Below, in pieces: positions 1 through 57,555 of a DNA stretch of 64,000 bases. The stretch is taken from NCBI RefSeq assembly GCF_040954645.1, contig NC_092807.1, forward strand, positions 78,514,017 to 78,578,016, in the 5' to 3' direction. The first letter of the stretch is position 1; every line of letters begins with the position of its first letter. The notes under the pieces are model-generated. The model ran no database searches, was not told the DNA's origin, and worked only from the letters and a program-made list of their open reading frames with translations. The DNA is from Diabrotica undecimpunctata. Its lineage: Eukaryota; Arthropoda; Insecta; Coleoptera; Chrysomelidae. Position numbers and translations under genes: made by a program.

Positions 1-1365
1 TGAATTATTTGATATTATTCTAAGTTGGTCACCATTGGGTATGTCATTTAAAGAAGAACCATAGCTTTGCACGAAAAGGTATTTATTAATAAGGGAGGAT
101 GGATAGGAATTCTCAATCAGAATTTTCTTAAGTAATTGAAGGGATTCCCTTCGATTAACCGGATGTGTCAGTCTATTTAGCCTGTAGCTTAAAGCTTTAA
201 TTAGGTTTAATTTATATTTAAAAGGATGACAAGAGTGGTAGTTGAGAAACCTGTTAGAGGCCATTGGTTTCCTGTACCAACTTGTAGTTAGGGTGTTATC
301 TTTCATTCTAATGACACGCATGTCTAAGAAGGGAATACTATTTGTGTTAGAGTCCTCAAGTTCAACAGTGAACTGTAAATGAGGATCAAACTCATTGAAC
401 AAAGACAAGGTGGCCTGAATCTTGTCTGGAGGTAAGGCTAGTAATAAGTAATCAACATACCGTTTAATGAAAGGGATTTGGAAATCTAAAAGACCCAAAC
501 GGTCAGATACTAAATCATCCAGTACATAATTAACTAGGATGGGAGAGATTGAGGAACCCATAGGTGTCCCAAAAATTTGAAGGTAATATTTGTCGTTAAA
601 GACCAAAAAATTAGTGTCAAATATTAATTGCAAAAGTTCTGCAAATACATCCCAGGATACAGGACAGTTAGGCTGGATGGAGTTCCAGTGATTTCTTAAG
701 GAGGTAATAACGCTGGAGAGGGGTAAATTAGTGAAAACAGATAACATCAAAACTCACTAAAATGTAGCCTTGTGGAAGTTCAAAATTATTAATAAATTGA
801 CTAAAATGAAAAGAATCAACAATATTAAAGTTGTTATTATAATTTTAAGATTTAGATAAGATGTCAGTTAAAAATTTAGAAATATTAGTGTTTGGTGAAT
901 TGATGGAGGAAACAATTGGCCTCATGCTCAATGTGGGCTTATGTATTTTAGGTAGACAATAAAATCTGGGAGCATATCCATCATAATTATGTAAAAATTT
1001 TGCAAGTTGTTGATCTATGATCTTTATATTTTTTAAATGTGTAATGAATTTATTTATTTTATTGGTAAATTTAGAGCAAGGGTTGGTAAAGAGAGGTTGA
1101 TAGTATCTATCATCATCTAACAACGATTGACTGAGGTTAAGATATTGATCTCTATCCATGAGGACAGTGGCATTCCCTTTATCACTTGTAAGAACGAGAA
1201 GATTGGGGTGAGTTTTTAAAAACATTACCGTCTCCCTGTAAATCATATCTAACTCCGATATGGGTTGTCTAGGGCGATTAGAATAATTCAACAGAATATT
1301 ATTGGAAGAAGACCTAAGAGATAAAAGATCAGAATTGTCAGCATGTGACAAAATATTTTCCACAT
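1..1365 (-). mobile_element. Penelope-like element (PLE) reverse transcriptase, broken
   Basis: Minus-strand RT of a Penelope-like retroelement, running off the left edge of the window. The 1363-845 part carries the N-terminal landmarks of the family: TSDKGNATVLMDRDQY, DDDRYYQPL, FYCLPKIHKP and LRPIVS-like MRPIVSSINSP. After a stop at 845 the reading continues in another frame through GTPMGSSISP (about 570-540), a degenerate catalytic box VDYLLL instead of YADD (about 465-445), FLDMRV, and W-RKP followed by the RFLNYHS-like thumb motif. The GIY-YIG endonuclease expected at the C terminus lies outside the window. Stops, a frame change and the altered catalytic box make it inactive. Family assignment is firm; exact ends are not. 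Confidence 0.88.
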
Positions 1366-1720
1366 CTGCTAAGATTCTACTAACCGAGTAATCTCTGAAA
1401 TTTAAAATTAAAATCTAATTGATTATAAATAAATTGTTGGAAGTGCATTCTCAAGATCTTTCTAGTTCTTTACACTATAAAATAAACCTTAATGTTTTTT
1501 ACTTAAGTTTTTATAATAACTTTTTTATATACATGTAGGTATGTTTATCACATGTTCTTTTGCTGTGCTAATTTTGTTAAATTGCAAACTATACCTAGTT
1601 TCAATTAATTGTTTTATACAACTTTAACTCTAAATGTCCAGTTTCGTAAGCTTTTCATATTTTCAACACACTTTTTTTTTCACTTCTCTATGGATGTTTG
1701 GTTTCATATTGTTCTTTTTA

Positions 1721-1790
1721 GATGAACTGATGATGCTTTCTGAGCAGAAAGCGAAACGTCTTCAATAAATAGATGAAGTAGCCACCTTCT
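1721..1790 (+). ncRNA. Hammerhead ribozyme motif of PLE end region
   Basis: CTGATGA at 1727-1733, a 6-bp stem II (GCTTTC/GAAAGC) and GAAA at 1753-1756 followed by C, with a candidate GTA cleavage triplet at 1778-1780. As in the other PLE copies here, one extra U separates the CUGAUGA box from stem II. The motif is on plus while the neighbouring RT is on minus, so this end repeat is inverted relative to the RT, as in the PLE at 42.2-43.6 kb. Stem I is not obvious from the flanks, so cleavage activity is uncertain. Confidence 0.65.
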
Positions 1791-1848
1791 TTGTCTTTTA
1801 TTTCTCCACTTTGACCGAAAAACCCACCACTCTTCGAGTGTACCTTAG

Positions 1849-1853
<5 letters not shown>

Positions 1854-1899
<46 letters not shown>
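1854..1899. repeat. (TA)n microsatellite
   Basis: About 45 bp of TA dinucleotides immediately outside the PLE end repeat. The other two PLE ends in the window also abut (TA)n. Confidence 0.97.
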
Positions 1900-17989: not shown

Positions 17990-19313
17990 GATCTCATTTA
18001 AAGAAAATATACCTTCCTCTTGAGTCAAGATGTTTAGTCCCACATGTAGCGTAACTGCTTCCTTTTTCCTGTATCTTCATCTCTTGTGAGAGCGTCGGCT
18101 ATGATATTCTCTTTTCCTTTGGTCCTTTTGGTTTTGAATTTATCGGAACTCAAAATCGTATTCCTGTAATAACAGGATGCCTCTATGTATCCGATTATTC
18201 ACTAATCGATTCTTCATGATATGGACCAAAGCTGCATGATCCGTCTCGATTGTCAATTTAGCGCCCAACAGATAAAACCTCAATTTATTCACATAAAATA
18301 GTACGCTGGCAAATTCGAGTTCTGTCACACTATAGTTTCTCTTATGTGTTTTTGTCACCCGAGAGATAAAACATATTGGTACTTCTCCGTTTTGTATTTG
18401 CGATAATACTCCTGCGAATTTTTGGATGGAAGCATCTGTTCGAAGGATGAATGGTAAATCATACACGGGGTGATATATTTTGGTTTCTTTTGAATTTAAA
18501 AACTTCTTCTGTTCTTCTTTCCAAGTCCATTTAATCCCTTTCTTTAATAGTTTTATTAGAGGTATTTCCTTTTGACTTAAATCAGGAATCAATTTTCTGA
18601 AATAATCGATCATGCCAAGAAAACTTCTCAATGTTTTCAAGTTTGTTGGTCTTGGGTATTCGTCGATGAGCTTAAATCGATCTTCGACTAAACTAATTCC
18701 TTTCGTATCCAATTTAAAGTCTAAATAAATCACTTCCTTTTGTAAAAATTTACATTTTTCGATGTTGAATTTTAATCCGGCTCTATCTAATTCTTCCATA
18801 ATTATTTTAATGTGTTTCAAATGATTCTGTTCATCTTGTGAAAAAATTAATAGATCATCGATGTAATAGACTATGAAATAGTCTGAAATTGTGTAGCTCC
18901 TACAAGTGCTACACAAGCACTTTGAAGTCCAAATGGCACTACTTTAAAACGGTATAAAATACCATCGATTGAGAATGCGGTATAGTTTCTACATTTTTCG
19001 GCTAAAGGTATTGATCAAAAACTATGCTTTACATCAATTTTGGAAAATATATGTAATCCCGTAATTCTTCCAAAAATGGCCTCAATGTTTAAAGGTGACT
19101 CATATTATAATACAGTGTGTTGGTTGATATTTCTAGCTTCCAAATATAGCCTCAATTCTCCACTGCTTTTCTTTACTATCACGATTGGATTGATATAAGG
19201 TGAATCACATCTCTCTATGATTTGATCTTCCGACATTTTATTAATTTCTCCCTTTACCTCATGCCGATACTTGGAATTTTTACCTCAAATGAATGTTCAT
19301 ACTTTTTCGCAAC
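17990..19313 (-). pseudogene. Gypsy-1 reverse transcriptase and RNase H
   Basis: The long ORF 18916-18140 has YYIDDLLIFSQDEQNHLKHI (RT active site YIDD), EKCKFLQKEV, LKTLRSFLGMIDYFRKLIPD, then RNase H with LRTDASIQKFAGVLSQ, RNYSVTELEFASV and ETDHAALVHIM. The RT fingers continue toward 19313 in broken frames. The N-terminal end is cut by the retrozyme-like array inserted at 19326; the protein resumes beyond 22152. The order RT, RNase H, integrase on minus is Ty3/Gypsy. Confidence 0.88.
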
Positions 19314-19325
19314 TCTATTTTCTTC
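19314..19325. repeat. Left 12-bp target site duplication
   Basis: TCTATTTTCTTC directly left of the 398-bp array; the same 12 bp recur at 22141-22152 directly right of it. They show that the array arrived as one insertion into Gypsy-1. Confidence 0.85.
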
Positions 19326-19574
19326 TAAAATCGTAGACTAATTTTCGAAACCAAATTCAAGAATTCCGCTTTAATCTGTGCCTTCTAAGAATTGCAAGGC
19401 AAAAACAGACGTTGATAAAGGTGTTAAGAGAGACATGGGGAATCTAAAAATTGCATTCCACAACATATCTCCTCAACTAAGCAAAATTCTTAGCGAATTG
19501 GTTTCTAGTACTCGTACAGAGTATATCGAAATAACAAGGAAAAGACAGTTAAGATTTTATTTCACGTATAGGGA

Positions 19575-19637
19575 GCTTGCGCATCCGTTTATACGTATTT
19601 CAGCCCAATAGGCATCATCAGAACGGCTTTCGCAAGC
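19575..19637 (-). ncRNA. Type I hammerhead ribozyme, unit 1
   Basis: Core on minus: CTGATGA (19621-19615), stem II GCC/GGC, GAAA, then ATACGTAT, a palindrome able to form stem III alone or as a dimer, with cleavage expected after AUA. Stem I is CCGTT/AACGG, an internal loop, then GCTTGCG/CGCAAGC; a further 9-bp pair lies outside. Confidence 0.8.
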
Positions 19638-19972
19638 GCTCTGAACGTGAAATAAATCTTCTCTGCCTTAGGAAGCAACTATAACATGGCTTCGTATAGA
19701 CGCAATGTAGCGACATCTAATAATAAAATCGTAGACTAATTTTCGAAACCAAATTCAAGAATTACGCTTTAATCTGTGCCTTCTAAGAATTGCAAGGCAA
19801 AAATAGACGTTGATAAAGGTGTTAAGAGAGACATGGGGAATCTAAAAATTGCATTCCACAACATATCTCCTCAACTAAGCAAAATTCTTAGCGAATTGGT
19901 TTCTAGTACTCGTACAGAGTATATCGAAATAACAAGGAAAAGACAGTTAAGATTTTATTTCACGTATAGGGA

Positions 19973-20035
19973 GCTTGCGCATCCGTTTATACGTATTTCA
20001 GCCCAATAGGCATCATCAGAACGGCTTTCGCAAGC
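19973..20035 (-). ncRNA. Type I hammerhead ribozyme, unit 2
   Basis: Same core and stems as unit 1, 398 bp further right. The 5' outer arm has one change (ACGTAAAAT for ACGTGAAAT on plus). Confidence 0.8.
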
Positions 20036-20370
20036 GCTCTGAACGTAAAATAAATCTTCTCTGTCTTAGGAAGCAACTATAACATGGCTTCGTATAGACG
20101 CAATGTAGCGACATCTAATAATAAAATCGTAGACTAATTTTCGAAACCAAATTCAAGAATTCCGCTTTAATCTGTGCCTTCTAACAATTGCAAGGCAAAA
20201 ACAGACGTTGATAAAGGTGTTAAGAGAGACATGGGGAATCTAAAAATTGCATTCCACAACATATCTCCTCAACTAAGCAAAATTCTTAGCGAATTGGTTT
20301 CTAGTACTCGTACAGAGTATATCGAAATAACAAGGAAAAGACAGTTAAGATTTTATTTCACGTATAGGGA

Positions 20371-20433
20371 GCTTGCGCATCCGTTTATACGTATTTCAGC
20401 CCAATAGGCATCATCAGAACGGCTTTCACAAGC
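20371..20433 (-). ncRNA. Type I hammerhead ribozyme, unit 3
   Basis: Core intact. The stem I region has two changes on plus (TTTCACAAGCGCTT instead of TTTCGCAAGCGCTC), one of which breaks a pair in the 7-bp outer stem. Confidence 0.75.
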
Positions 20434-20844
20434 GCTTTGAACGTGAAATAAATCTTCTCTGCCTTAGGAAGCAACTATAACATGGCTTCGTATAGACGCA
20501 ATGTAGCGACATCTAATATTAAAATCGTAGACTAATTTTCGAAACCAAATTCAAGAATTCCGCTTTAATCTGTGCCTTCTAAGAATTGCAAGGCAAAAAC
20601 AGACGTTGATAAAGGTGTTAAGAGAGACATGGGGAATCTAAAAATTGCATTCCACAACATATCTCCCCAACTAAGCAAAATTCTTAGCGAATTGGTTTCT
20701 AGTACTCGTACAGAGTATATCGAAATGACAAGAAAAAGACAGTTAAGATTTTATTTCACGTATAGGGAGCTTGCGCATCCGTTTATACGCAGCCATGTTA
20801 TAGTTGCTTCCTAAGGCAGAGAAGATTTATTTCACGTTCAGAGC

Positions 20845-20907
20845 GCTTGCGAAAGCCGTTCTGATGATGCCTATTGGGCTGAAATACGTATAAACGGATG
20901 AGCAAGC
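20845..20907 (+). ncRNA. Type I hammerhead ribozyme, first unit of inverted block
   Basis: CTGATGA at 20861-20867 with GAAA intact. The 3' arm reads GATGAGCAAGC rather than GATGCGCAAGC, losing one stem I pair. Confidence 0.78.
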
Positions 20908-21242
20908 TCCCTGTACGTGAAATAAAATCTTAACTGTCTTTTCCTTGTTATTTCGATATACTCTGTACGAGTACTAGAAACCAATTCGCTAAGAATTTTG
21001 CTTAGTTGAGGAGATATGTTGTGGAATGCAATTTTTAGATTCCCCATGTCTCTCTTAACACCTTTATCAACGTCTGTTTTTGCCTTGCAATTCTTAGAAG
21101 GCACAGATTAAAGCGGAATTCTTGAATTTGGTTTCGAAAATTAGTCTACGATTTTATTAATAGATGTCGCTACATTGCGTCTATACGAAGCCATGTTATA
21201 GTTGTTTCCTAAGGCGGAGACGATTTATTTCACGTTCAGAGC

Positions 21243-21305
21243 GCTTGCGAAAGCCGTTCTGATGATGCCTATTGGGCTGCAATACGTATAAACGGATGCG
21301 CAAGC
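21243..21305 (+). ncRNA. Hammerhead motif with broken core (GAAA to GCAA)
   Basis: CTGATGA at 21259-21265, but the second conserved box reads GCAA; the other six units keep GAAA. This should abolish or strongly reduce self-cleavage of this unit. All stems are otherwise intact. Confidence 0.78.
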
Positions 21306-21640
21306 TCCCTATACGTGAAATAAAATCTTAACTGTCTTTTCCTTGTTAGTTCGATATACTCTGTACGAGTACTAGAAACTAATTCGCTAAGAATTTTGCT
21401 TAGTTGAGGAGATATGTTGTGGAATGCAATTTTTAGATTCCCCATATCTCTCTTAACACCTTTATCAACGTCTGTTTTTGCCTTGCAATTCTTAGAAGGC
21501 ACAGATTAAAGCGGAATTCTTGAATTTGGTTTCGAAAATTAGTCTACGATTTTATTATTAGATGTCGCTACATTGCGTCTATACGAAGCCATGTTATAGT
21601 TGCTTCCTAAGGCAGAGAAGATTTATTTCACGTTCAGAGC

Positions 21641-21703
21641 GCTTGCGAAAGCCGTTCTGATGATGCCTATTGGGCTGAAATACGTATAAACGGATGCGCA
21701 AGC
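21641..21703 (+). ncRNA. Type I hammerhead ribozyme, third unit of inverted block
   Basis: CTGATGA at 21657-21663, GAAA, palindromic ATACGTAT, and both stem I helices are complete. Confidence 0.82.
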
Positions 21704-22038
21704 TCCCTATACCTGAAATAAAATCTTAACTGTCTTTTCCTTGTTATTTCGATATACTCTGTACGAGTACTAGAAACCAATTCGCTAAGAATTTTGCTTA
21801 GTTGAGGAGATATGTTGTGGAATGCAATTTTTAGATTCCCCATGTCTCTCTTAACACCTTTATCAACGTCTGTTTTTGCCTTGCAATTCTTAGAAGGCAC
21901 AGATTAAAGCGGAATTCTTGAATTTGGTTTCGAAAATTAGTCTACGATTTTATTATTAGATGTCGCTACATTGCGTCTATACGAAGCCATGTTATAGTTG
22001 CTTCCTAAGGCAGAGAAGATTTATTTCACGTTCAGAGC

Positions 22039-22101
22039 GCTTGCGAAAGCCGTTCTGATGATGCCTATTGGGCTGAAATACGTATAAACGGATGCGCAAG
22101 C
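22039..22101 (+). ncRNA. Type I hammerhead ribozyme, fourth unit of inverted block
   Basis: CTGATGA at 22055-22061 with all core and stem elements intact. The unit is cut 39 bp later at the array edge (22140). Confidence 0.82.
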
Positions 22102-22140
22102 TCCCTATACGTGAAATAAAATCTTAACTGTCTTTTCCTT

Positions 22141-22152
22141 TCTATTTTCTTC
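22141..22152. repeat. Right 12-bp target site duplication
   Basis: TCTATTTTCTTC, identical to 19314-19325. Confidence 0.85.
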
Positions 22153-33070: not shown

Positions 33071-34505
33071 ATGAAGAAAGCTAAAAAGAAACTTAAAGAA
33101 GAAAAGAAACTTGTACCTAAAAGGAATGCATCCAAGCATCATCCTATTACTGTAAGCAAATTTCATCTTATTTCTAATTCTAATATCAATTCACAAGTAT
33201 CATCCTTTAGAATAAGCGATTCTCTTTCAACAATTTTCGAATCTAATATAGAATCTAGTGAAAATATTAAACCAGATTTACATTTAGTTGACAATAATCA
33301 TATTTTTAAGTCCACAAATTTGTTTGAAATACCTTCTATAATTATTACACCAGCATCCATTTCAAATAATTCTAATATGGCACCCATTTTTGATGTTAAT
33401 AAAGACCTTTCTATCGTACCAGAGTACGAAGGCAATCCAAATGAACTCCACAATTTTATTGATGTTATTTCCATGCTTCTAAACCATTTCTGGGATCATA
33501 CAAATCCTGAAAATTTTCAAAATCACATGCTTACCCGAGGAATTATGAACAAAATTAAAGGAAGAGCCAGATAAATTATTTATGTATACGGCTGTAAAGA
33601 CTGGCCGTCAATAAAATCAATTCTGGTCCAAAATTTTGCAGACCAACGTAACGAAAACTCATTAACTAGAGATTTAGTTGATCTTCGTCAAGCTCCAAAC
33701 GAAAACCCTCATCAATTTCACGAAAAAGTCTTTTAAATACTATTTCAAATCATATTGAATTACACACAGAAAACGAGGAAGTTAAAAGAAGTAAAAAGAA
33801 TTTTTCCAACAACAAGCTCTAACCACATTTTTGGCAGGCCTAAGAGAACCCCTAGGATCAACAATTCGATCCATGAGACCACCCAATCTCGCTCTTGCTA
33901 TCCAATATATTCAGGAAGAAAATAACATTAGATATCTCCAAAAAACTCATAGTTATTCCTTGCCATCTTCTAATAAACCATCTGCGACTTCACAAACACA
34001 GAGATCCAATTTAACTCATACACCTGCTCCTACACGATGGCAGCCTGAGGTGCCCAAGCCCCAATGGCCACAGCCATTCTTTAGACCAAATCAAATTCCT
34101 GTGCAACAACAATCATTCAATAATAGTCCAAGAGGGACATTTCAACCTCCTAGATTCCAACAAAATCATCAAATCACTCCATATGCACAAAATTCTAGGG
34201 CTAATCAACCCAATTTTCATAAACCAGTTCCATCTCAATCATATAAGCCAACACCTATGAGCGTATCTACACGCCAAACCGGCTTTAATAGACCCCAATC
34301 TCAAAGGAACTTCCGCTTTCAACAAACAGCCAGCCTCCGATTCACCGTAGAAGAACTCTTTAATATCGAACAAGAGGAAAATAATTACGATGAAGGTATA
34401 GACAATGACACATACCCAGATTACACTTATTATGAGCAAGAAAGCCAAAAATATGAGGAAGATGTAAATTTTCAAATGTTTCAAGACGAAAAAGAAGAAA
34501 TGTAG
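33071..34505 (+). pseudogene. Errantivirus Gag
   Basis: Two open pieces, 33071-33574 and 33831-34505, with a damaged bridge holding stops and a frame change. The N-terminal part is Lys-rich, then Ser/Asn-rich, then has VPEYEGNPNELHNFIDVI, the start of the capsid-like region. The C-terminal part is Gln/Pro/Asn-rich with no CCHC knuckle, followed by an acidic end (about 34370-34500). Both features are usual for insect errantiviral Gag. The ATG at 33071 is about 140 bp after the LTR and is the first plausible start. Confidence 0.8.
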
Positions 34506-34510
34506 TAGAA

Positions 34511-35813
34511 TTGCATTCCTATGCCGACAAAAGAGAGCTTCCTTACATTAAGATTCAAAATCCCCATCTTAAACTTCTTATTGATACAGGAGCCACTAAA
34601 TCTTTCCTTAATCCTGATATAGCCAATAAATTCTACAAGAATAATATTAAATACGAACCCTTTATCGTTACATCAATTTTTCAGAATCATTCACAAGATT
34701 ATTGTGTAGAAATTCCAAGTTTTGCCGAATTTAACTCCGATATTAACCTAAAATTTTATCTTTTCAAATTTCACAAGACATTTGACGGTCTTATCGGCCT
34801 CGATAATCTTAAACTTCTAAAAGCAAATCTCGATTTTACCCAAGCTAGCAATTACCCAAGTCCGCTTGCCAGTAAAGGAAACATCAAGTACAATCGTCAT
34901 CCCAAGACAAGAAGTCGAAGGTACCACCCTAAGAGAAACTCTCACCGTTACCTGTAATCAACTCGCCTGGACCAAGCTAGTCAATGACACCGATGAATAC
35001 ATCCAAGTAGCATTAACTGATCCCATCAAAAGTCAACCCATAAATCTCGAGGAATATCATATATATACGTCAGATATCCTACCTACCGAAGACAGTAATC
35101 TAAAAGATGTCGATCCTCTCCTTAGAACTGATCGTCTTAATACCGAAGAAGAATCTCACCTAAGACGACTGTGCAGGAAGTTTGCAGAGATATTTCATCA
35201 TCCAGACGATCCTTTAACATTTACTAACCAAATAAAGCACCATATACGAACCAAAGACGAAGTTCCAGTTTATACCAAGTCATATCGGTATCTACACATC
35301 CATAAAGAAGAAGTACGTAAGCAGATCACTTCGATGCTTGATCAAGGAATTATCAGACCGAGTCAATCACCCTGGTCATCTCCAATCTGGGTCGTTCCAA
35401 AGAAACCAGATGCCTCAGGAAAAATTAAATGGAGAATAGTTGTCGACTACCAGAAGGTGAACGAGAAAACCATCGATGACCGATATCCAATTCCAAATAT
35501 AACAGACATTCTGGACAAACTAGGACGCTGCCAATACTTCTCAACCCCAGATCTAGCCAGCGGATTCCATCAAATTGAAATGGCCGAAGAAGTTATCCAG
35601 AAGACTGCATTTAACATTGAAAATGGCCACTATGAATACATGAGAATGCCGTTCGGACTCAAAAATGCACCCTCAACATACCAGAGAGTAATGGAGAACG
35701 TACTAAAAGGACTAATAGGAGAAATATGTCTAGTCTACATGGATGACATTATTGTATTTTCAACCTCTCTTCAAGAACACATGGTAAATCTTAGAAAATT
35801 TTTGAAAGATTAA
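34511..35813 (+). pseudogene. Errantivirus protease and RT (5' part of pol)
   Basis: The protease active site LLIDTGATKSF lies near 34570-34600 in the ORF 34511-34957. RT follows in another frame (34866-35813): [80 protein letters not shown] and the active site [10 protein letters not shown] (YMDD). The Gag-to-pol passage needs a frame shift, as expected for translational frameshifting, but the protease/RT frame change inside pol is a lesion. Confidence 0.9.
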
Positions 35814-36782
35814 GAAAAACAAGATTTAAGATACAAGTTGACAAATGTGAATTCCTTAAGACAGAAGTCGATTTTCTAGGCCACGTCGTAACCTGCGAGG
35901 GGAATTAAACCAAACCCGACTAATATTAAAGCCATCATAGACGATCCTGTACCAAAAACAACAAAAGAAATTCGAGGATTTTTAGGATTACTTGGTTACT
36001 ATAGAAAATTCATAAAGGACTTTGCCAAAATTACAAAACCACTTACTATATGTCTTAAAAAGGATGCAAAAATTGAACACACCGAAGAATTCTTAAACTG
36101 TATGCAACGACTTAAACTTAACTTAAACTTGACTTAACTTAAACGACTGATGCAAGCAACTTCGCTATAGGAGCCATCCTATCACAAGGTCCAATAGGAA
36201 ACGATAAACCTATCGCCTATGCATCCAGAACTTTAAATGAAACTGAACTGAAATATTCGACTATCGAAAAGGAGATGTTAGCAATTGTGTGGGCTACTAA
36301 ATACTTCCGCCCATACCAAAATTTTATCTGACCATCGACCACTACAATGGCTATTTTCACTTAAAGACCCAAACTCAAAGCTTGTCAGATGGAGATTAAA
36401 GCTGGAGGAATTTGATTACGAAGTAATATATAAAAAAGGCAAATCCAACACCAATGCAGATGCTTTATCCCGCGTCGAAATTCACACGAAAGAATTAAAC
36501 AGTGTAGACGAGAATATGGAAGAAATAATGAAACTCCTCTCAAAAGATAACGATGATATCTCTATGATTAACCACCCCAGTTCCTTATCCGATCTGGAAG
36601 AATTTCTAACCGACCCAGCCGAAGAGTCTCAACAAACTTTGAATCCGTCAACCCCTTTAGGCGACTTAGATAAAATCATCCAAAAAAATCAAACTGCAAC
36701 GTTAACTCCCGAAGAAATAAAGATAATAGACGAAATCCTACATGAAGACAGCAAACAGCAAAAATCTAAAGCTCGGCCATGA
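35814..36782 (+). pseudogene. Errantivirus RT thumb and RNase H
   Basis: After a frame change at about 35813: [36 protein letters not shown], then RNase H with [16 protein letters not shown] (about 36148-36190), [17 protein letters not shown] and [15 protein letters not shown], ending KGKSNTNADALSRV. A short tandem insertion (variants of CTTAAACTTAA at 36107-36146) lies immediately before the first RNase H aspartate. Several shifts; not functional. Confidence 0.85.
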
Positions 36783-37860
36783 AACTCCCAATACTTACAA
36801 GAAGATAACGATACAGATGTAACCAAACATTCCACGGCAGAAAATCCAATAATGGGAATTCCAATTAGCGAGAATCCACTAAATTGTTACAATAATCAAA
36901 TAATTTTCAAGATAGTAAATTACAACCCGGCGAAACCAACCATAGAGCAGTGTTTTGTAACAAAGAAGAGAATGTATGTCCAATTGGAAAAAAATGATCT
37001 TCACAACGACATTTTCTAGTTTTTCAAGAACTATATAGATCCGAAAAAGAAGTACGCCATTCTGTTCGAGAATGATGAACTCTACAAATCCCTATGCAAT
37101 ATTCTACGAGAAACTTTTAAAAATTCAGCATTCGATCTTGTCAAAAGCAGCCTCCTAGAAGATATAAACAGCACAGAGAGACGGAAAGAAATTATAGAGA
37201 ACTACCATCAAGGGAAGACTAACCACAGAGGAATTAACGAAACCGAAGCTCAAATAAGAAAACGCTACTACTGGCCTACGCTAAAGAAAGACATCGAAGA
37301 AGTTATCAACCTTTGTGATACATGCCAAGCTAACAAGTATGACAGAAATCTAATTAAGCCGAAATTTATGATAACACCAACTCCAACGAAACCATTAGAA
37401 ATCATTCATATGGACACATTCTAAGCTAACGGACAAAAATTTCTTACAATAATTGATGCATTCTCGAAATATGGCCAAGCATATCCCATAGAAGGATCCA
37501 ACGCAATAAATGTCCTTAATGCCTTCATGCTCTTTATAACCCACCATGGACTCCCACACGATAATCGCAGATAGTGGAACCGAATTTAAGAACGGCCTTG
37601 TTCAGGAATTTGTCGATACACACAAAATTTCGATTCACTACACAACACCAGATAATCCACAATCGAACGGAATGATAGAACGTTTTCACTCTACAATTTT
37701 GGAACACCTACGAATACTTAGAGAAAAAAGGAAGACTCTGGGTATTAAAGAACATAGGTTGTATGCCATTTTAGGATACAACAATTCCATTCATTCATCA
37801 ACTAAACAAAAGCCAATCGAAATTCTAAATGGCCATATCGATCCTTAGGATCCATTTGAC
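36783..37860 (+). pseudogene. Errantivirus integrase
   Basis: The zinc-binding HHCC region has YHQGKTNHRGINETEAQIR and VINLCDTCQANKYD (about 37200-37340). The catalytic core reads HMDTF with a stop right after, FLTIIDAFSKYGQAYPIEG, IIADSGTEFKNG and NPQSNGMIERFHSTI, giving D, D and E. The best ORF is 37546-37848, with stops on both sides. It continues weakly into a basic tail to about 38200 that overlaps the env start region. Confidence 0.88.
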
Positions 37861-38199
37861 ATCAATATTAACAGAACCCTAATAAATAACTATACACAGA
37901 GCCACAGATTAAAGACAAAAGAAATCTACAGTGAAATAAACAAAAAGCTACAAGAAACCAAACAGAAAAAAATTGAAAAAATAAATCAAAAAAGACAAAC
38001 GCCAATAACTTATAAACCCAGCACAAAAGTTTACACTAGAAAAACAGTAAAAAGAAACAAACTTCTTCAGAGATTTTCTTCCCGCATTGTGAAAAATAAT
38101 AATCCCGTAACAATAGACACTCAAGATATGTCAATACACAAAAAGAACATCAAACACCAGCCAAAGACTAACGCTAAAACTGCTTTACAGATGTACCTT

Positions 38200-39907
38200 A
38201 GTAGCAGCCCAACAAGTTCAAATTCAAAACCTAAAGGACAATCCAGGAATCCTCCCAGTTAAACTTGGACAAGCGAGGATACAGACCAGCACTCATGACT
38301 TCATCCACTATTTCCATCTAGAACCCATCGCAGGAGAGATTGAATCCATAGAATCTCAGTATATCACCACCAACAGAGCAATAGAAAATGGACTTAGCCA
38401 ACTATATTTTGACAGCCTACAAAACTTTGATAAAACTGTACAGTACCTCCTCCAAACAGCAAAAGAGAAACTCGACACAATATATCCAAAATCCAGAAGC
38501 AAAAGAGGACTAATAAACGGATTGGGAAGTGTAATAAAATCTATTTCTGGTAATCTAGATCAAGAAGATGGTGAAAGATACAACGCTGCCATTAAATCGC
38601 TTGAAAATAACCAACAGAACATTATTACCAACATCAATAGCCAACTCAGTCTCAATAAAAGAATAATGACAAATTTTAACCAAACAATTTCATTACTTAC
38701 ACACAACCAAGAAATCATAGCTGAAGAGACAAACAAAATTAGCTTAGAGATGAACCAATTCGTTTTCGATTTTAATGATTATATGCAAGTTCGAAATATC
38801 CTTGACCAGATAAATCTAAATTTATAAACAATTATACAAATACTGGATGATCTACAAACAGCAATTACATTTGCAAGAATCAAAACTTTACACAACGGTC
38901 TCATTAAACCTGAAGAAATAAAATGTACCGTGCAAAAGATGCTTGAACACCACCCTGCATCACAGATTCCCTATATTCAAGAAGAAGTCTTATCCGAATA
39001 CTATGAAATCATAGACATTGATGGTTACTACACGAATCACACCCTTGTTTTCATTTTACATTTTCCTATTCTTCATTCCAAGTCGTTCACATACTTCCAT
39101 TTATACTTCCTTCCAACTAATAATCACACAATAATCATTCCACCTGGTCCATACCTAGTCCACAACTCAGACCGTTTTCAATATATGGATGTACCATGCA
39201 AAAGAAGCGAATCCAAATCATTCATCTGTCCTGAGAAATTTCCACAAGAGAATGACCAGACTAATGACTGCATCATCCAAATTCTCCAGTTAATCAATGA
39301 TGCTGCCCAATGCCAAAGTGTTCCCGTCACTGTCACTACAACGATCATTCAAAAAGTATCCGATGCACACTACATTGCCGTTTTTCCAAAGGCTACGAAA
39401 GTATCTACCCATTGCACCACCACTGAAATAGAAGTACTCGAAGGGACCTATCTAATTGAGTTACCGCCAGGATGTGAACTACGAACCAATAATGAAGTTT
39501 ACATGAATTCCAAAACAACAATTAAAGAAGAACCACTAACATTACCAAAAGTCAAGACCATCACTATTCTGAAGAACCACCCAATAGTCAAACCCCTAAA
39601 ATTGGACAGAATACCTTTAGACAAACTACACAAGTTATCACAGGAAGAAGAAAGGTTCCAATCCATCCTCCCAACACAAATGGACCACAGCTACATATGG
39701 ACACCACCAATATATATCCTGGTAGCAATCCTTTTAATTTTTGGTTTTCTCAAGCTACGCAAACTGAAAAAAGAAAAAGATGAGCAGAATCCAACCACAG
39801 CAGAAGACATCCCTGACCAAAGTCAAGAGTCCTCAGAAACAGTTCACAGAGTTTTGTTCATCCCTCACAAAACTTCCCCAGGGGATGGAGAAATTACGAT
39901 ACATTAA
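38200..39907 (+). pseudogene. Errantivirus Env (F-like fusion glycoprotein), one in-frame stop
   Basis: One reading frame from about 38200 to the TAA at 39905-39907, broken by a single stop at 38825-38827. The features fit baculovirus-F-like errantiviral envelopes. A basic furin-type site SRSKR at about 38493-38507 is followed directly by a hydrophobic glycine-containing fusion-peptide-like stretch. Then come heptad-like helices rich in N/Q, a cysteine-containing ectodomain, and a C-terminal membrane span (YILVAILLIFGF, about 39714-39750) with a short basic then acidic cytoplasmic tail. Such proteins sit in the virion or cell membrane and mediate fusion. No splice acceptor was assigned with confidence. 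Confidence 0.85.
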
Positions 39908-44156: not shown

Positions 44157-44228
44157 TCCTCGGTAGTATAGTAGTCAGTATCCCCGCCTGTCACGCGTGA
44201 GACCGGGGTTCGATTCCCAGTCGGGGAG
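44157..44228 (+). tRNA. tRNA-Asp(GTC)-like, degenerate
   Basis: Clear cloverleaf order: acceptor TCCTCGG with TCGGGGA, D-arm GTATAGTAGTCAGTA, anticodon loop CTGTCAC (GTC, Asp) and T arm GGGTTCGATTCCC, with discriminator G. Compared with insect tRNA-Asp there is one mismatch in the anticodon stem (GCGTG for GCGGG) and one in the T stem (CCCAG for CCCCG). TTTTTT follows at 44232-44237 as a Pol III terminator. It lies in the core of the TIR element, so it is probably a captured, drifting copy. Confidence 0.8.
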
Positions 44229-53244: not shown

Positions 53245-54075
53245 AGACAAAAATGCTGTACATTAAATGATAGAAAAAATGTTTGATATAGAAACACGTA
53301 AGACAGAAAGCATGGACAATAATGATGGAGATTGTATAAAATATCTTACATAGAAACACGTAAGGCAGAAAGCATGGATAATAATGATAGAAAATATATA
53401 AAACATCTAACATAGAAACACGTAAAACAGAACTGCTGTACATAAAATGATAGAAAATGTGTAAAATATCTATCATAGAAACACATAAGGCAGAAAGCAT
53501 GGACAATAATAATTGAGAATTTATAAAATATCTGACATAAAAACACGAAAGACCGAAATTCTGTACATAAAATGATAGAAAATGTGTAAAATATCTGACA
53601 CAGAAACACGTAAGGCAGAATACATAAATAAGAATGATAGAAAATGTATAAAATATATAACATAGAAACACGTAAGACAAAAATGCTGTACATAAAATGA
53701 TAGAAAATGTAAATGTAAAATATCTGACACAGAAACACGTAAGGCAGAATACATGAATAAAAATGATAGAAAATGTATAAAATATATAACATAGAAACAC
53801 GTAAGACAGAAATGCTGTACATAAAATGATAGAAAATGTGTAAAATATCTATCATAGAAACACGTAAGGCAGAAGGCATGGGTAATAATAATAGAAAATG
53901 TATAAAATATCTAACATAGAAACACGTAAGACAGAAATGCTGTACATAAAATGATAGAAAATGTGTAAAATATCTAACATAGAAACACGTAAGACAGAAA
54001 GCATGGACAATGATGATGAAAAATGTCTAAAATATCTGTCATAGAAACACGTAAGGCAGACAGCATGTTTAATAA
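53245..54075. repeat. 63-bp minisatellite, about 13 units
   Basis: Unit: AGAAACACGTAAG(A/G)CAGAA, then either TGCTGTACATAAAATGATAG or AGCATGGACAATAATGATAG, then AAAATGTGTAAAATATCT and AACAT or ATCAT. The two middle variants tend to alternate, giving a 126-bp higher order. 63 is a multiple of 3, so long minus ORFs (53800-53231, 53879-53346) with a 21-residue repeat are artefacts. Confidence 0.9.
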
Positions 54076-54392
54076 TGAACGATTTACATGTAAAATTTGC
54101 TGAATGGAGAATAATTAAATATCGAAACCGGCAGAGTATAACGTATTAATCAATTGACACTAATGAGAATAGATGTAAACAACAAAAAAATCTTAATTAT
54201 TCCCACCACAAACATCGCTAACACGGAATATTACCAACAGGCAAAGGTCTACTCGAATGGTGTTAGGATGAAAAAAGGAATGTTTATGTGTAAAAACAAA
54301 TCGACGTCGGCATATTGTTAAGGTACTCCAGAGTTTAAATACCAAAAAAAAAGATGTTTATTGCTGTAATACAGATACTAGGAAATAAATAA

Positions 54393-55790
54393 AAGTTCTT
54401 TCCGGGTTTTGGTAATAATACGAGTCTCGCCAATTTCAGTTTATCTGGGAACTCTTGCGTATTCAACAGTTCATTGAATATTCTGCGCATCAGGTCGGGT
54501 TTCTCTTTTACTACCAGTTTTATTGCTTCTGGCGTTACTTTATCCGGGCCTGGTGCTTTTCCTGCCTTTATACTCTCTGCTACTTGTATAATCTCTTCAG
54601 TAGTGAACTCTGCAGGTCTAATATTGTTGTCTATCCGTAGGAATGTATTTTCGGGCTTGCTTGGAAATAGGGTGTTCGCTATTTCCATCTTTCTTTTTTT
54701 ATTAAGGTTATATGGGGTCTCGAACCTTAGGCTTTTCATGGCAATCTTATATGCTTCACCCCATATGTCTTCTTCCAGCGCAGCATACAAATCCTGCCAA
54801 CATGTGCGTTTGGCCCTTTTAATTTCAATACTTAATTCTTTTTTGGCGCTCTTATATGCCTCCTTATGTTCTTCTTGGTTCTTGTGTCTTTGTGCTATAC
54901 GCCTGTGTCTTAAGCATTCCTCTCGCTTATTTTGGATCTGGTCATTCCACCAGTAAGGTACTGTATATGTGGTGTGCCTATTTATGGTACTTCTTCTATG
55001 TGCATTTATGATATTTTCTCGTAACTCATTAAAGTTGGTAGTTTCTTCTTGTAGGTTATTTATTTCTGTTTTAAATTTTTCTTTATCGAATATTGTTCTC
55101 TTCCTGCCATATTTCCTGACCTTGGTACCAATGTCGTACGTGATGTACCGATGGAAGGTGAAAAGGTTCTCATCCAGTACATCCCAATCCCTGATCTTAT
55201 TGGCAACACCATTGCTAGCTATGGTGACATATATGTGACTTTTTGATGTACCTCTCACAAAGGTTGGTTTTCCATTGTTTAACACTATAAGGTCCGCTGC
55301 GGAGATCCACTCATTCCAAATTTCACCCCTCTCGTCATTTCGGGAGGAGTTCATTTATCCATAGAATGGATTTTGCGTTTATGTCTCCGGCTACTAGAAA
55401 ATGTTTCTCCCTCTGCGACGTGTCGATTATATTTTCCGTGTGTTGTCTGTAACGCTCTCTAGTAATATTTGGAGAAATATAGCATGCTATTAAGGTTATT
55501 TTGTCGATTTTTATTGTTATATACCCCTCTTTTTTACTATTTTATTAATGCACACATTTTTGTTTAGTATTTTTATCGCTACATCGGTGTTATTATCATA
55601 TATCCAGCCTTTATTCGTAGCTATCCTCTTATTAGGTTCTGGGACAATCAAGAGATCTGCTTCTATGTCCAGGGCTTTCGCGTAAATTAAGTCGTGTATT
55701 CGTGTATTACCTTTGCTCTCCCGGCGTTGACTTGTAATATTTTTAGTCTCTTTGTCCGTATCGCAGCCATTTTTAGATACCTACCACTAG
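54393..55790 (-). pseudogene. R1-clade LINE ORF2: endonuclease and RT start
   Basis: Begins near 55790 with TKRLKILQVN. The apurinic-type endonuclease follows with LIVPEPNK, TLIACYISPN and VAGDINAKS (broken frames, 55770-55360). The long ORF 55354-54335 continues with NEWISAADLIVLNNGKPTF, VRGTSKSHIYVTIAS (end of the endonuclease), YWWNDQIQNKREEC, FTTEEI, ESIKAGKAPGPDKVTPEAIK and LKLARLVLLPKPGK, where homology stops. The RT catalytic domain is absent. Confidence 0.87.
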
Positions 55791-55846
55791 CGTATTAGGT
55801 CATGTAGGTCACGTAGATGGATTGATGGCGTTTATTATTGTGACTA

Positions 55847-57555
55847 TCAAAGGATAATTCGTTGGACACTATCCGGCGACAATTCGTCCACCTTCTGGCT
55901 TGTGCCTTCAGGTGTCTGAGCCTCGCTGAGCGTCATGCTTACTTCGTCGCAGGCTTTTGAAAACTCCATCATAAGAGGGTCTTCGAAGACCTCGGCTACT
56001 TCGGTAGGTACCTGCACGTTTGTTTTTACGGGTATACTAGGGGGGAGGGGAGGTAGATGTAACTTGGTCCCCTGCCTTTCGGAATCGCTAGCCTTTTTCA
56101 GGGCTACCCAAAATTCTGGACAATCCATTCTTCCTGTTCTGTTTTCTGCTTTACACAGGACACACCAAAGTTTTCCCTCACATTCTTTTATGCCATGATT
56201 TTTCCCTCCACAGCGATAGCACATGTCGCTGCGATCTGGTCCTCTGCAGCTCGCTGTTTCATGGCTATAGGCCCAACACTTACTGCATCTGATAACTCTC
56301 AAACGTGTTTCTAACTGGCATCTGACTTCCCGAGGATAACTTCCGTCACCCTCACAGGAACTACCAGTGTGGTTGCCTGGGTGTCTCCTCTTAGCGGTCT
56401 TAGTTCGCCTATTTTGTATGTGTCCTCCCATTTGCCTGACTTGTTCATTGAAGGCCTCTATTATTTTCTCTTTAGTGGCATCTACTGACATACACCTAAT
56501 GTGTAGGGTTAAGTTCTTTCCTTCATCCCCTAACTGGAAGGCCCTTAAACCGTCCTCCTTTTTATTTAATGCTGTCTTAATTTTGTTTAGGGCCGCCTGG
56601 TCCTTTTCTAGGGTGATGAGAAGCCTACCATCTTTGGTACTCCTCATCGATCTGACTGCTTTCGTGGCTCCAGTCGTCTTAACGGCCGTTTTTACCGTTT
56701 GCAGGATCTGATTATAATCTCCATCTTTTTTGGAGACTATCATACCATACGTGGGACGTTCCTTACGTTGTGTTGTTGTGTAGACTAGCACCTTCGTTTC
56801 AGTCTTCTGAAAGATGACCTCACACATCTTCCTGAGGTCACGGACGGTGAGGTAGCTGACGTGGTGTAACGCCACTTTACCTCCCAGACACATCTCTTCT
56901 TTTACCTTGATGAGGTTTTCCCAAAGATTTTTTCGGTCCCCTGTTGGCTTGATTTTTATAATCTTTTTAGTCTGTGTCTCCTTATTTCTTATTATGGTTG
57001 ACTGTACTAGAACCTCGTATGGGTCCTCTAGACCAGACAGTTCCGGGTATCTATCCCTGTACATTCTTTGGATGCTGTTGTTCGTGGACACATCCTTTGG
57101 CTCAACTAGGACCACTTTCGTAACATTGTTGCCTATTTCGATCGGATTTCCGATTACTACTTTGGTGTTATTAAAAACTTTTTCCTCCCACTCGTGACCC
57201 ACTATGGCCCCATTCTTCAAAGGTCTTGATTTTTTCTATGTTTGTTATTTTTCTACCTACATGTCGGACCTACATGCCATGGGTCGGTCTGGATGTCAGC
57301 TTCCATCATCCTCTTTTCAACTGGCTCGTATCTGTGCTTCTTCAACCACTCTATTACAAAGTCTTTTTCAAATGTTTTAGAGGTTTTTTCCAATTTTGCC
57401 GCTACTTTTTTTATGCCTTTATGGGTATTGGGAACCTCCGCCATTAATCTGGTGAGTTTATGTACTAGTGTTTGATAAGTCTCCTGCCCTCCCATAATAG
57501 TGAAGTATTCACAGCATTCTTTTTTCATATATTTCATTTGCCTCTGTTGGATCAT
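55847..57555 (-). pseudogene. R1-clade LINE ORF1 (Gag-like, three zinc knuckles)
   Basis: The main ORF, 57220-55847 (457 codons), is preceded in another frame by 57555-57253 (LTRLMAEVPNTHKGIKKVAA), so one frameshift near 57240 breaks it. The C-terminal third holds CSKCWAYSHETASC and CYRCGGKNHGIKEC (CX2CX4HX4C) and a third CVLCKAENRTGRMDC, the usual trio of R1-clade ORF1 proteins. They bind the element RNA in its ribonucleoprotein. The middle (about residues 175-260) looks like an RRM-type fold with LHIRCMSVDATKEKII. Confidence 0.87.

What the first reader, a model, noticed from the sequence alone, without database searches (positions are those of the whole stretch)
19326..22140. Tandem 398-bp hammerhead-ribozyme units: a retrozyme-like array
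Every full unit contains a complete-looking type I hammerhead: CUGAUGA, short stem II, GAAA, palindromic AUACGUAU for stem III, AUA cleavage triplet, then AACGG...CGCAAGC pairing back to GCUUGCG...CCGUU. The tandem arrangement, small unit size, absence of protein genes and flanking target duplication match animal retrozymes. If transcribed, the units should self-cleave to 398-nt monomers that could circularise. The unit sequence is not one I recognise.
Basis: partly seen in the sequence, partly recalled or inferred. Interest (0 to 1): 0.92.

Follow-up and report, generated by a model that had tools for sequence, protein, structure and literature searches.

The report
Circle-forming jumping RNA, inserted two ways
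A small non-coding jumping element of an insect, probably a beetle, carries a self-cutting RNA motif and seems to copy itself into the genome by running reverse transcriptase round and round an RNA circle from both strands of a cut DNA site.

Summary
The array is real, but it is two head-to-head 398-bp tandem arrays (3.7 and 3.4 units) inside one perfect 12-bp target duplication. Six of seven hammerheads are intact. Rfam models miss them, but a diverged subfamily of the same genome keeps the fold through compensatory changes. The host genome (1.74 Gb; insect, probably beetle) holds 552 exact copies of the 37-nt core.

In 39 loci (window included), 35 of 57 RNA-sense 3' ends fall at unit positions 52-61 (S1) and 16 at 245-265 (S2). 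5' ends look uniform and do not cluster at the cleavage site. Eighteen loci are head-to-head, none tail-to-tail; 13 of the 18 pair one S1 arm with one S2 arm, none pairs two alike. TSDs are mostly 12 bp, with a mirrored NTT motif at both nicks. Locus-specific alleles are fixed across units and arms.

Best reading: a non-LTR animal retrozyme whose monomeric circRNA was copied by rolling-circle reverse transcription primed from both target strands, in the manner of Penelope-like elements, which show the same topology in this genome. Self-cleavage, the circle and the enzyme are inferred, not shown.

The parts
19314..19325 (.). left copy of the 12-bp target site duplication TCTATTTTCTTC
22141..22152 (.). 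right copy of the 12-bp target site duplication
19326..20789 (-). left arm, 3.68 units of 398 bp; RNA-sense 3' end at 19326 = unit position 264 (S2)
20780..22140 (+). right arm, about 3.4 units; RNA-sense 3' end at 22140 = unit position 54 (S1). Shares 20780-20789 with the left arm
20780..20789 (.). inversion joint: about 10 bp that fit both arms (TATACG exact in both); joint also abuts the predicted cleavage site of the left arm
19585..19621 (-). type I hammerhead core to inner stem I, intact; predicted cleavage after 19590 on this strand
19983..20019 (-). type I hammerhead core, intact
20381..20417 (-). type I hammerhead core, intact
20861..20897 (+). type I hammerhead core, intact; predicted cleavage after 20892
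21259..21295 (+). type I hammerhead with GAA changed to GCA (A>C at 21280), expected inactive
21657..21693 (+). type I hammerhead core, intact; predicted cleavage after 21688
22055..22091 (+). type I hammerhead core, intact; predicted cleavage after 22086

Best explanation
A young non-LTR retrozyme family of an insect (probably beetle) genome. Tandem transcripts are cut by their type I hammerheads into 398-nt monomers, which are closed into circles (inferred). An endonuclease and reverse transcriptase of Penelope type (inferred) nicks the two target strands about 12 nt apart at N^NTT. Each free 3' end primes the circle at a preferred internal site: S1 (unit positions 52-61) for one strand and, when the other strand is extended too, S2 (245-265). 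Each cDNA runs round the circle for up to about fifteen laps and stops anywhere. The two cDNA ends meet head to head, often over a few bases of homology, and filling in gives the duplication. Shown by sequence: ends, target motif, TSDs, topology, one monomer haplotype per insertion. Inferred: cleavage, the circle and the enzyme.
For: Ends: 35 of 57 3' ends at 52-61 and 16 at 245-265; 59 scored 5' ends fit a uniform spread (KS p 0.46) with 4 within 10 nt of the cut against 3.0 expected. Topology: 18 of 39 loci head-to-head, 0 tail-to-tail; 13 of 18 are S1 plus S2, none two alike; in the second subfamily 10 head-to-head and 0 tail-to-tail neighbours. Target: TSD in 29 of 39 loci, 14 of them 12 bp, against 9 of 390 control placements; mirrored NTT motif at both nicks in 28 oriented sites. 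Single monomer: 230 of 232 locus-by-column cells fixed, 89 of 89 two-arm cells agree; private 269T in 6 of 6 window units over both arms. Fold: compensatory changes in stems I and II between subfamilies. Uninterrupted relatives of the insertion site: 10 of 40 matches. Same genome: Penelope-like copies, 20 head-to-head and 0 tail-to-tail neighbours among 150 matches, with two 3' ends 30 nt apart in one pair. Purified anole Penelope-like protein cuts and extends both strands and starts internally (PMC11167929, parts 1-2 of 4).
Against: No hammerhead in Rfam. The hammerhead-competent fold is not the predicted minimum: 4.7 kcal/mol above it in the circle, and a hand-drawn form of the 106-nt motif is 10.7 above. 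Six of 57 3' ends are at neither site and 10 of 39 loci lack a perfect TSD of 8 bp. In three of six second-subfamily loci the ends do not fit S1 plus S2. Six loci carry a minority base in two or more units. The Penelope-like family examined sits in TA repeats, unlike the retrozyme, and its relative in the anole does not need its hammerhead for insertion in vitro (PMC11167929). No RNA data.
Confidence: 0.75

Rival explanations
1. Linear multimer template: uncut or partly cut tandem transcripts, not circles, are reverse transcribed by the same two-strand mechanism.
For: Long arrays exist that could give long transcripts (at least 56 exact cores at C1:59680084-59705638). Penelope-like insertion in vitro does not need hammerhead cleavage (PMC11167929, part 2). 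Six loci have a base shared by two or more but not all units.
Against: Alleles that differ between loci are fixed within them: 230 of 232 cells. The window's private 269T is in 6 of 6 units of both arms; copying a multimer would put a new mutation in one unit only.
Confidence: 0.15
2. Twin priming by a LINE with an APE-type endonuclease: ordinary target-primed transcription with a second, internal priming on the same linear RNA.
For: Gives the same head-to-head order with TSDs (recalled for L1). LINE remnants lie in the window (ORFs 54335-57220).
Against: Both nicks bear the same mirrored NTT motif; an APE-type nick motif (recalled) would mark one strand. The 3' ends show no poly(A) or simple tail. 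The second start is a fixed site, S2.
Confidence: 0.07
3. Self-priming: a hairpin at the end of an antisense RNA or cDNA makes the inverted arms, as proposed in 2013 for rotifer Penelope elements (PMC3846280, passages).
For: Explains head-to-head rather than tail-to-tail order; the unit holds the palindrome AUACGUAU.
Against: Inner 5' ends lie all over the unit, not at a palindrome; the two outer ends use two different preferred sites; both nicks carry the motif, as expected if both target strands prime.
Confidence: 0.03
4. Ordinary satellite or tandem DNA amplified at the DNA level (unequal exchange, eccDNA), the hammerhead being a relic.
For: Tandem homogeneous arrays, one long array on C1.
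Against: Dispersed short insertions with TSDs at most loci, preferred ends and a target motif; compensatory conservation of the fold.
Confidence: 0.02

Closest known systems
Animal non-LTR retrozymes (Cervera and de la Pena 2020, PMC7229834; parts 1-4 of 6 read)
   Same: Type I hammerhead, tandem non-coding units of 150-450 bp, low G+C, TSD longer than 4 bp, co-existence with Penelope-like elements. The axolotl HHR_Amex2 has the same two-pair stem III with a tetraloop and the same U.U at the base of stem II.
   Different: The unit sequence is not matched in the collections searched. Head-to-head arms, two fixed start sites and an NTT target motif are not described in the parts of that paper that I read.
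Penelope-like elements (PMC11167929, parts 1-2 of 4; PMC3846280, passages)
   Same: Head-to-head copies with TSDs, two internal start sites, cutting of both strands at an ATT-type motif, a hammerhead nearby.
   Different: No reverse transcriptase or endonuclease ORF in the unit; the two start sites are about 200 nt apart rather than adjacent or 30 nt apart; many laps of a small unit.
pDo500 hammerhead satellite of Dolichopoda cave crickets (PMC2837043, passages)
   Same: Insect tandem repeat with a type I hammerhead conserved by compensatory changes.
   Different: Described there as a satellite; 68-bp double or 49-bp single hammerhead region in a repeat of another sequence; insertion ends not examined in the passages seen.
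Plant LTR retrozymes (as described in PMC7229834; PMC4918200 seen in a search listing only)
   Same: Hammerhead-processed circular RNA thought to be mobilised in trans.
   Different: Type III hammerhead, LTRs with PBS and PPT, 4-bp TSD, circles of 600-800 nt.

Membership tests
Animal non-LTR retrozyme | type I hammerhead in each unit | tested here: met
   6 of 7 window units intact; fold covaries between subfamilies
Animal non-LTR retrozyme | tandem units of 150-450 bp with G+C under 50% | tested here: met
   398 bp, 37.7% G+C
Animal non-LTR retrozyme | no protein-coding frame | tested here: met
   no ORF of 150 aa or more in the array; smaller frames not examined
Animal non-LTR retrozyme | TSD longer than 4 bp, dispersed insertions | tested here: met
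   29 of 39 loci, modal length 12
Animal non-LTR retrozyme | highly self-paired monomer circle | tested here: met
   window unit -115 kcal/mol as a circle, below all 200 shuffles, z -6.8; 1 of 151 other pieces of the window as low
Animal non-LTR retrozyme | helix I / helix II loop contacts | tested here: inconclusive
   internal loop AAAG/AUG in stem I and a short loop II are present; contacts cannot be judged from sequence
Animal non-LTR retrozyme | self-cleavage and linear plus circular RNA in tissue | not testable with these tools
   no RNA data or bench
Hammerhead ribozyme, type I | match to Rfam hammerhead models | tested here: not met
   none at E up to 10 or at gathering score
Hammerhead ribozyme, type I | conserved core CUGANGA, GAA, NUH and three stems | tested here: met
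   9 of 9 sequences compared keep the core; three single pairs are broken in three of them
Penelope-like element | RT and GIY-YIG reading frame | tested here: not met
   no ORF of 150 aa or more in the unit
Penelope-like insertion mechanism (works like) | head-to-head copies, internal start sites, both strands cut | tested here: met
   same topology in Penelope-like copies of this genome
Penelope-like insertion mechanism (works like) | enzyme acts on this RNA | not testable with these tools
   partner family not identified; at least 73 GIY-YIG matches in the genome
Plant LTR retrozyme | type III hammerhead and 4-bp TSD | tested here: not met
   type I, 12-bp TSD

The most novel reading that the evidence does not exclude
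Retrozyme circles are integrated by two-strand target-primed rolling-circle reverse transcription: one circular RNA serves as template for both target strands, each strand primed at its own fixed RNA site (S1 and S2), by a Penelope-type enzyme, and the insertions record the laps.
Probability: 0.6. Interest if true: 0.82.

Novelty: new variant of a known kind. Interest (0 to 1): 0.74.

Why it matters
How animal retrozymes get into DNA has been a proposal; PMC7229834 names Penelope-like elements as a strong candidate. How Penelope-like elements make head-to-head copies is also open: self-priming was proposed in 2013 (PMC3846280) and two-strand extension was seen in vitro in 2024 (PMC11167929). 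A 398-nt non-coding element with hundreds of copies makes both questions directly testable. Start sites, laps, joints and target motif can be read from the genome, and the monomer haplotypes are genomic evidence that one RNA monomer templated whole double arrays.

Tried and rejected
Junction at the cleavage site: the window's inversion joint abuts the predicted cut (TATACG microhomology), which first suggested a cut linear template. Over the 59 5' ends scored there is no such clustering (4 seen, 3.0 expected), so it was dropped. Four of the 59 are breaks between same-strand arms of L037 and L045, not true 5' ends.

Rfam: four searches of retrozyme sequence found no hammerhead, and one of the Penelope-like candidate at 1690-1800 found none either. 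The mir-1597, MIR6143, mir-499 and rox2 hits lie far below their gathering scores and were taken as chance fits to hairpins.

Collections: two patterns in viral contigs and one in genome contigs gave 0 matches.

S1-S2 closeness in the predicted fold is not special. The shared word TGTCTTTT near S1 and in the Penelope-like 3' part (seen by eye) could be chance and is not used.

Which Penelope-like family is the partner was not found: the one examined targets TA repeats, and the 73 GIY-YIG matches were listed without flanks.

Full report
Observation. The window holds 398-bp units in two arms, 19326-20789 with the ribozyme on the minus strand and about 20785-22140 on the plus strand, 98% complementary. 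A perfect 12-bp duplication flanks the whole. Six of seven hammerheads are intact; one has GAA changed to GCA at 21280. A descriptor scan found 5 matches in 100 simulated windows. Rfam finds no hammerhead.

Ribozyme. Stem I inner CCGUU/AACGG, an internal loop, outer GCUUGCG/CGCAAGC; stem II GCC/GGC over a U.U mismatch; stem III AU/AU closed by ACGU; triplet AUA. The axolotl HHR_Amex2 has the same weak points and still cleaves, better as a dimer (PMC7229834, parts 1-4 of 6 read). A second subfamily, about 80-89% identical by pieces, was read at six of the loci listed. All 8 keep the core (CUGAAGA in one). Outer stem I has become GCGUCUGUG/UACAGACGC or a shorter form of it, and the first pair of stem II has flipped from G-C to C-G. 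L063b changes an inner stem I pair from G-C to A-U. Three single pairs are broken: A/C in stem I of L064b, C/A in stem II of L066, U/U in stem III of L062. In the circular fold the hammerhead-competent state lies 4.7 kcal/mol above the minimum, and a hand-drawn form of the isolated 106-nt motif 10.7 above; such energies ignore the core contacts. The window unit as a circle is more stable than 200 of 200 shuffles (z -6.8).

Genome. The window lies in a genome of 1.743 Gb. The four named relatives of a LINE ORF are Diabrotica, Ceutorhynchus, Zophobas and Euwallacea, of 7 hits; that these are beetles is recalled, and the host as a beetle is inference. The exact 37-nt core occurs 552 times, its reversed control 0 times. 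A 501-bp query gave 211 matches with 39 of 2128 candidates scored, and the printed list was cut. Its rows form 39 loci, the window plus 38 that I fetched; all 39 were mapped. One old copy in L010 was left out of the counts. These are the closest copies, not a random sample.

Ends. With position 1 just after the predicted cut, 57 RNA-sense 3' ends were placed: 35 at 52-61, 16 at 245-265, six elsewhere (4, 14, 84, 179, 223, 307). The 59 5' ends scored fit a uniform spread (KS p 0.46); four of them are breaks between same-strand arms in L037 and L045, and those of L017 were not scored. Twenty-one loci have one orientation only: 19 end at S1, one at S2, one at neither. Eighteen have two orientations, each head-to-head. 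Thirteen are S1 plus S2, three S1 plus another site, two S2 plus another site, none two alike. If arms chose independently at the observed frequencies, 13 mixed pairs of 13 would have a chance of about 2 in 100,000 (worked by hand). Of 17 joints scored, 9 overlap by 1-10 bp, 3 abut and 5 have extra bases (4, 8, 9, 25, 364). The second subfamily shows ten neighbouring opposite-strand pairs, each head-to-head, among 64 of the 120 matches, the short ones left out. Of its six loci read, three end at 62/264, 264/62 and 67/262; the other three at 59/161, 297/374 and 8.

Target. Perfect TSDs of at least 8 bp occur in 29 of 39 loci, 14 of exactly 12 bp, against 9 of 390 control placements. In the 28 sites that could be oriented by S1, A stands 3 and 2 bases before the TSD in 25 and 24, and T stands two bases after its end in 25; the flanks average 33% A and 33% T. 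Read on the strand that is cut, both nicks are N^NTT. The anole Penelope-like protein prefers ATT on each strand (PMC11167929, parts 1-2 of 4 read). Ten of 40 listed matches to the joined flanks of the window insertion span the site without a 2.8-kb insert (not read base by base).

One monomer per insertion. Six columns differ among at least four loci. Within loci, 230 of 232 cells are fixed, the two exceptions being single units, and in 89 of 89 two-arm cells the arms agree. Many loci share the common haplotype and say little. Two-arm loci with another haplotype are the window, L009, L013, L014, L020 and L021, some covered in part. The window carries 118G, 119G, 140T, 332T and 269T in each unit read, and 322G in 6 of 7; 269T is found in no other of the 39 loci and is in 6 of 6 units of both arms. 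L014 has 217A in 10 of 10 and L010 has 52T in 7 of 7. The 26 variable columns of the window are singletons, four of them at the joint or the end. Six loci have a minority base in two or more units (L010, L014, L024, L027, L042, L045): L027 position 356 switches once along its arm, and L042 position 41 has the change once in each arm. These are not explained by a single circle.

Mechanism. The simplest account is two-strand target-primed reverse transcription of a circle, up to 14.7 laps in one arm. The circle, its cleavage and the enzyme are inferred. Among 150 scored Penelope-like matches of the same genome, many with open frames of up to 862 aa or more, 20 neighbouring pairs are head-to-head, none tail-to-tail and 4 on the same strand. 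[quoted passage not shown] The three 3' ends of that family which I read run into TA repeats, so it is probably not the partner itself.

Novelty. Eight paper searches with combinations of the terms retrozyme, hammerhead, Penelope, twin priming, target-primed, head-to-head, both strands, satellite DNA, insect and beetle listed no paper whose title or abstract start tells of head-to-head retrozymes or fixed start sites. Five papers were opened in part: PMC7229834, PMC11167929, PMC7761336, PMC2837043, PMC3846280. The library is open-access only, and two key papers on Penelope hammerheads were not held.

Unexplained. Single-unit substitutions lie nearer the 5' ends than expected (permutation P 0.001 for 143; 0.014 without the window; about 0.06 in single-arm loci alone and in two-arm loci without the window).

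Noticed in passing
window 1-1898: Penelope-like fragment: RT part on the minus strand (1-1403) and a head-to-head arm on the plus strand (1398-1855) with a minimal hammerhead at 1727-1760, running into a TA repeat.
   Followed up: partly
the 39 mapped loci: Single-unit substitutions are denser towards the 5' (last copied) ends of arms; in the window 6,3,2,0 and 7,3,1 per unit from the joint outward. Cause unknown.
   Followed up: partly
G000:C1:59680084-59705638: Much longer array on the same strand: at least 56 exact hammerhead cores, 48 of 55 steps exactly 398 bp. Possibly a source locus.
   Followed up: no
L027 position 356; L042 position 41; L045 positions 7 and 337 (unit positions): Bases shared by some but not all units of one insertion: template switching between circles, gene conversion or later change.
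   Followed up: no
window 33071-39907: Ty3/gypsy-like element with an RT frame and an envelope-like frame matching Baculo_F. Only described.
   Followed up: no
window 18140-19325 and 22153 onward: The retrozyme sits in a Ty3/gypsy-like remnant whose relatives elsewhere lack the insert.
   Followed up: partly
window 53288-54068: Tandem array with a 62/125-bp period beside LINE-like ORFs.
   Followed up: no
window 44157-44228: tRNA match, the only Rfam gathering hit of the window, next to AT repeats.
   Followed up: no
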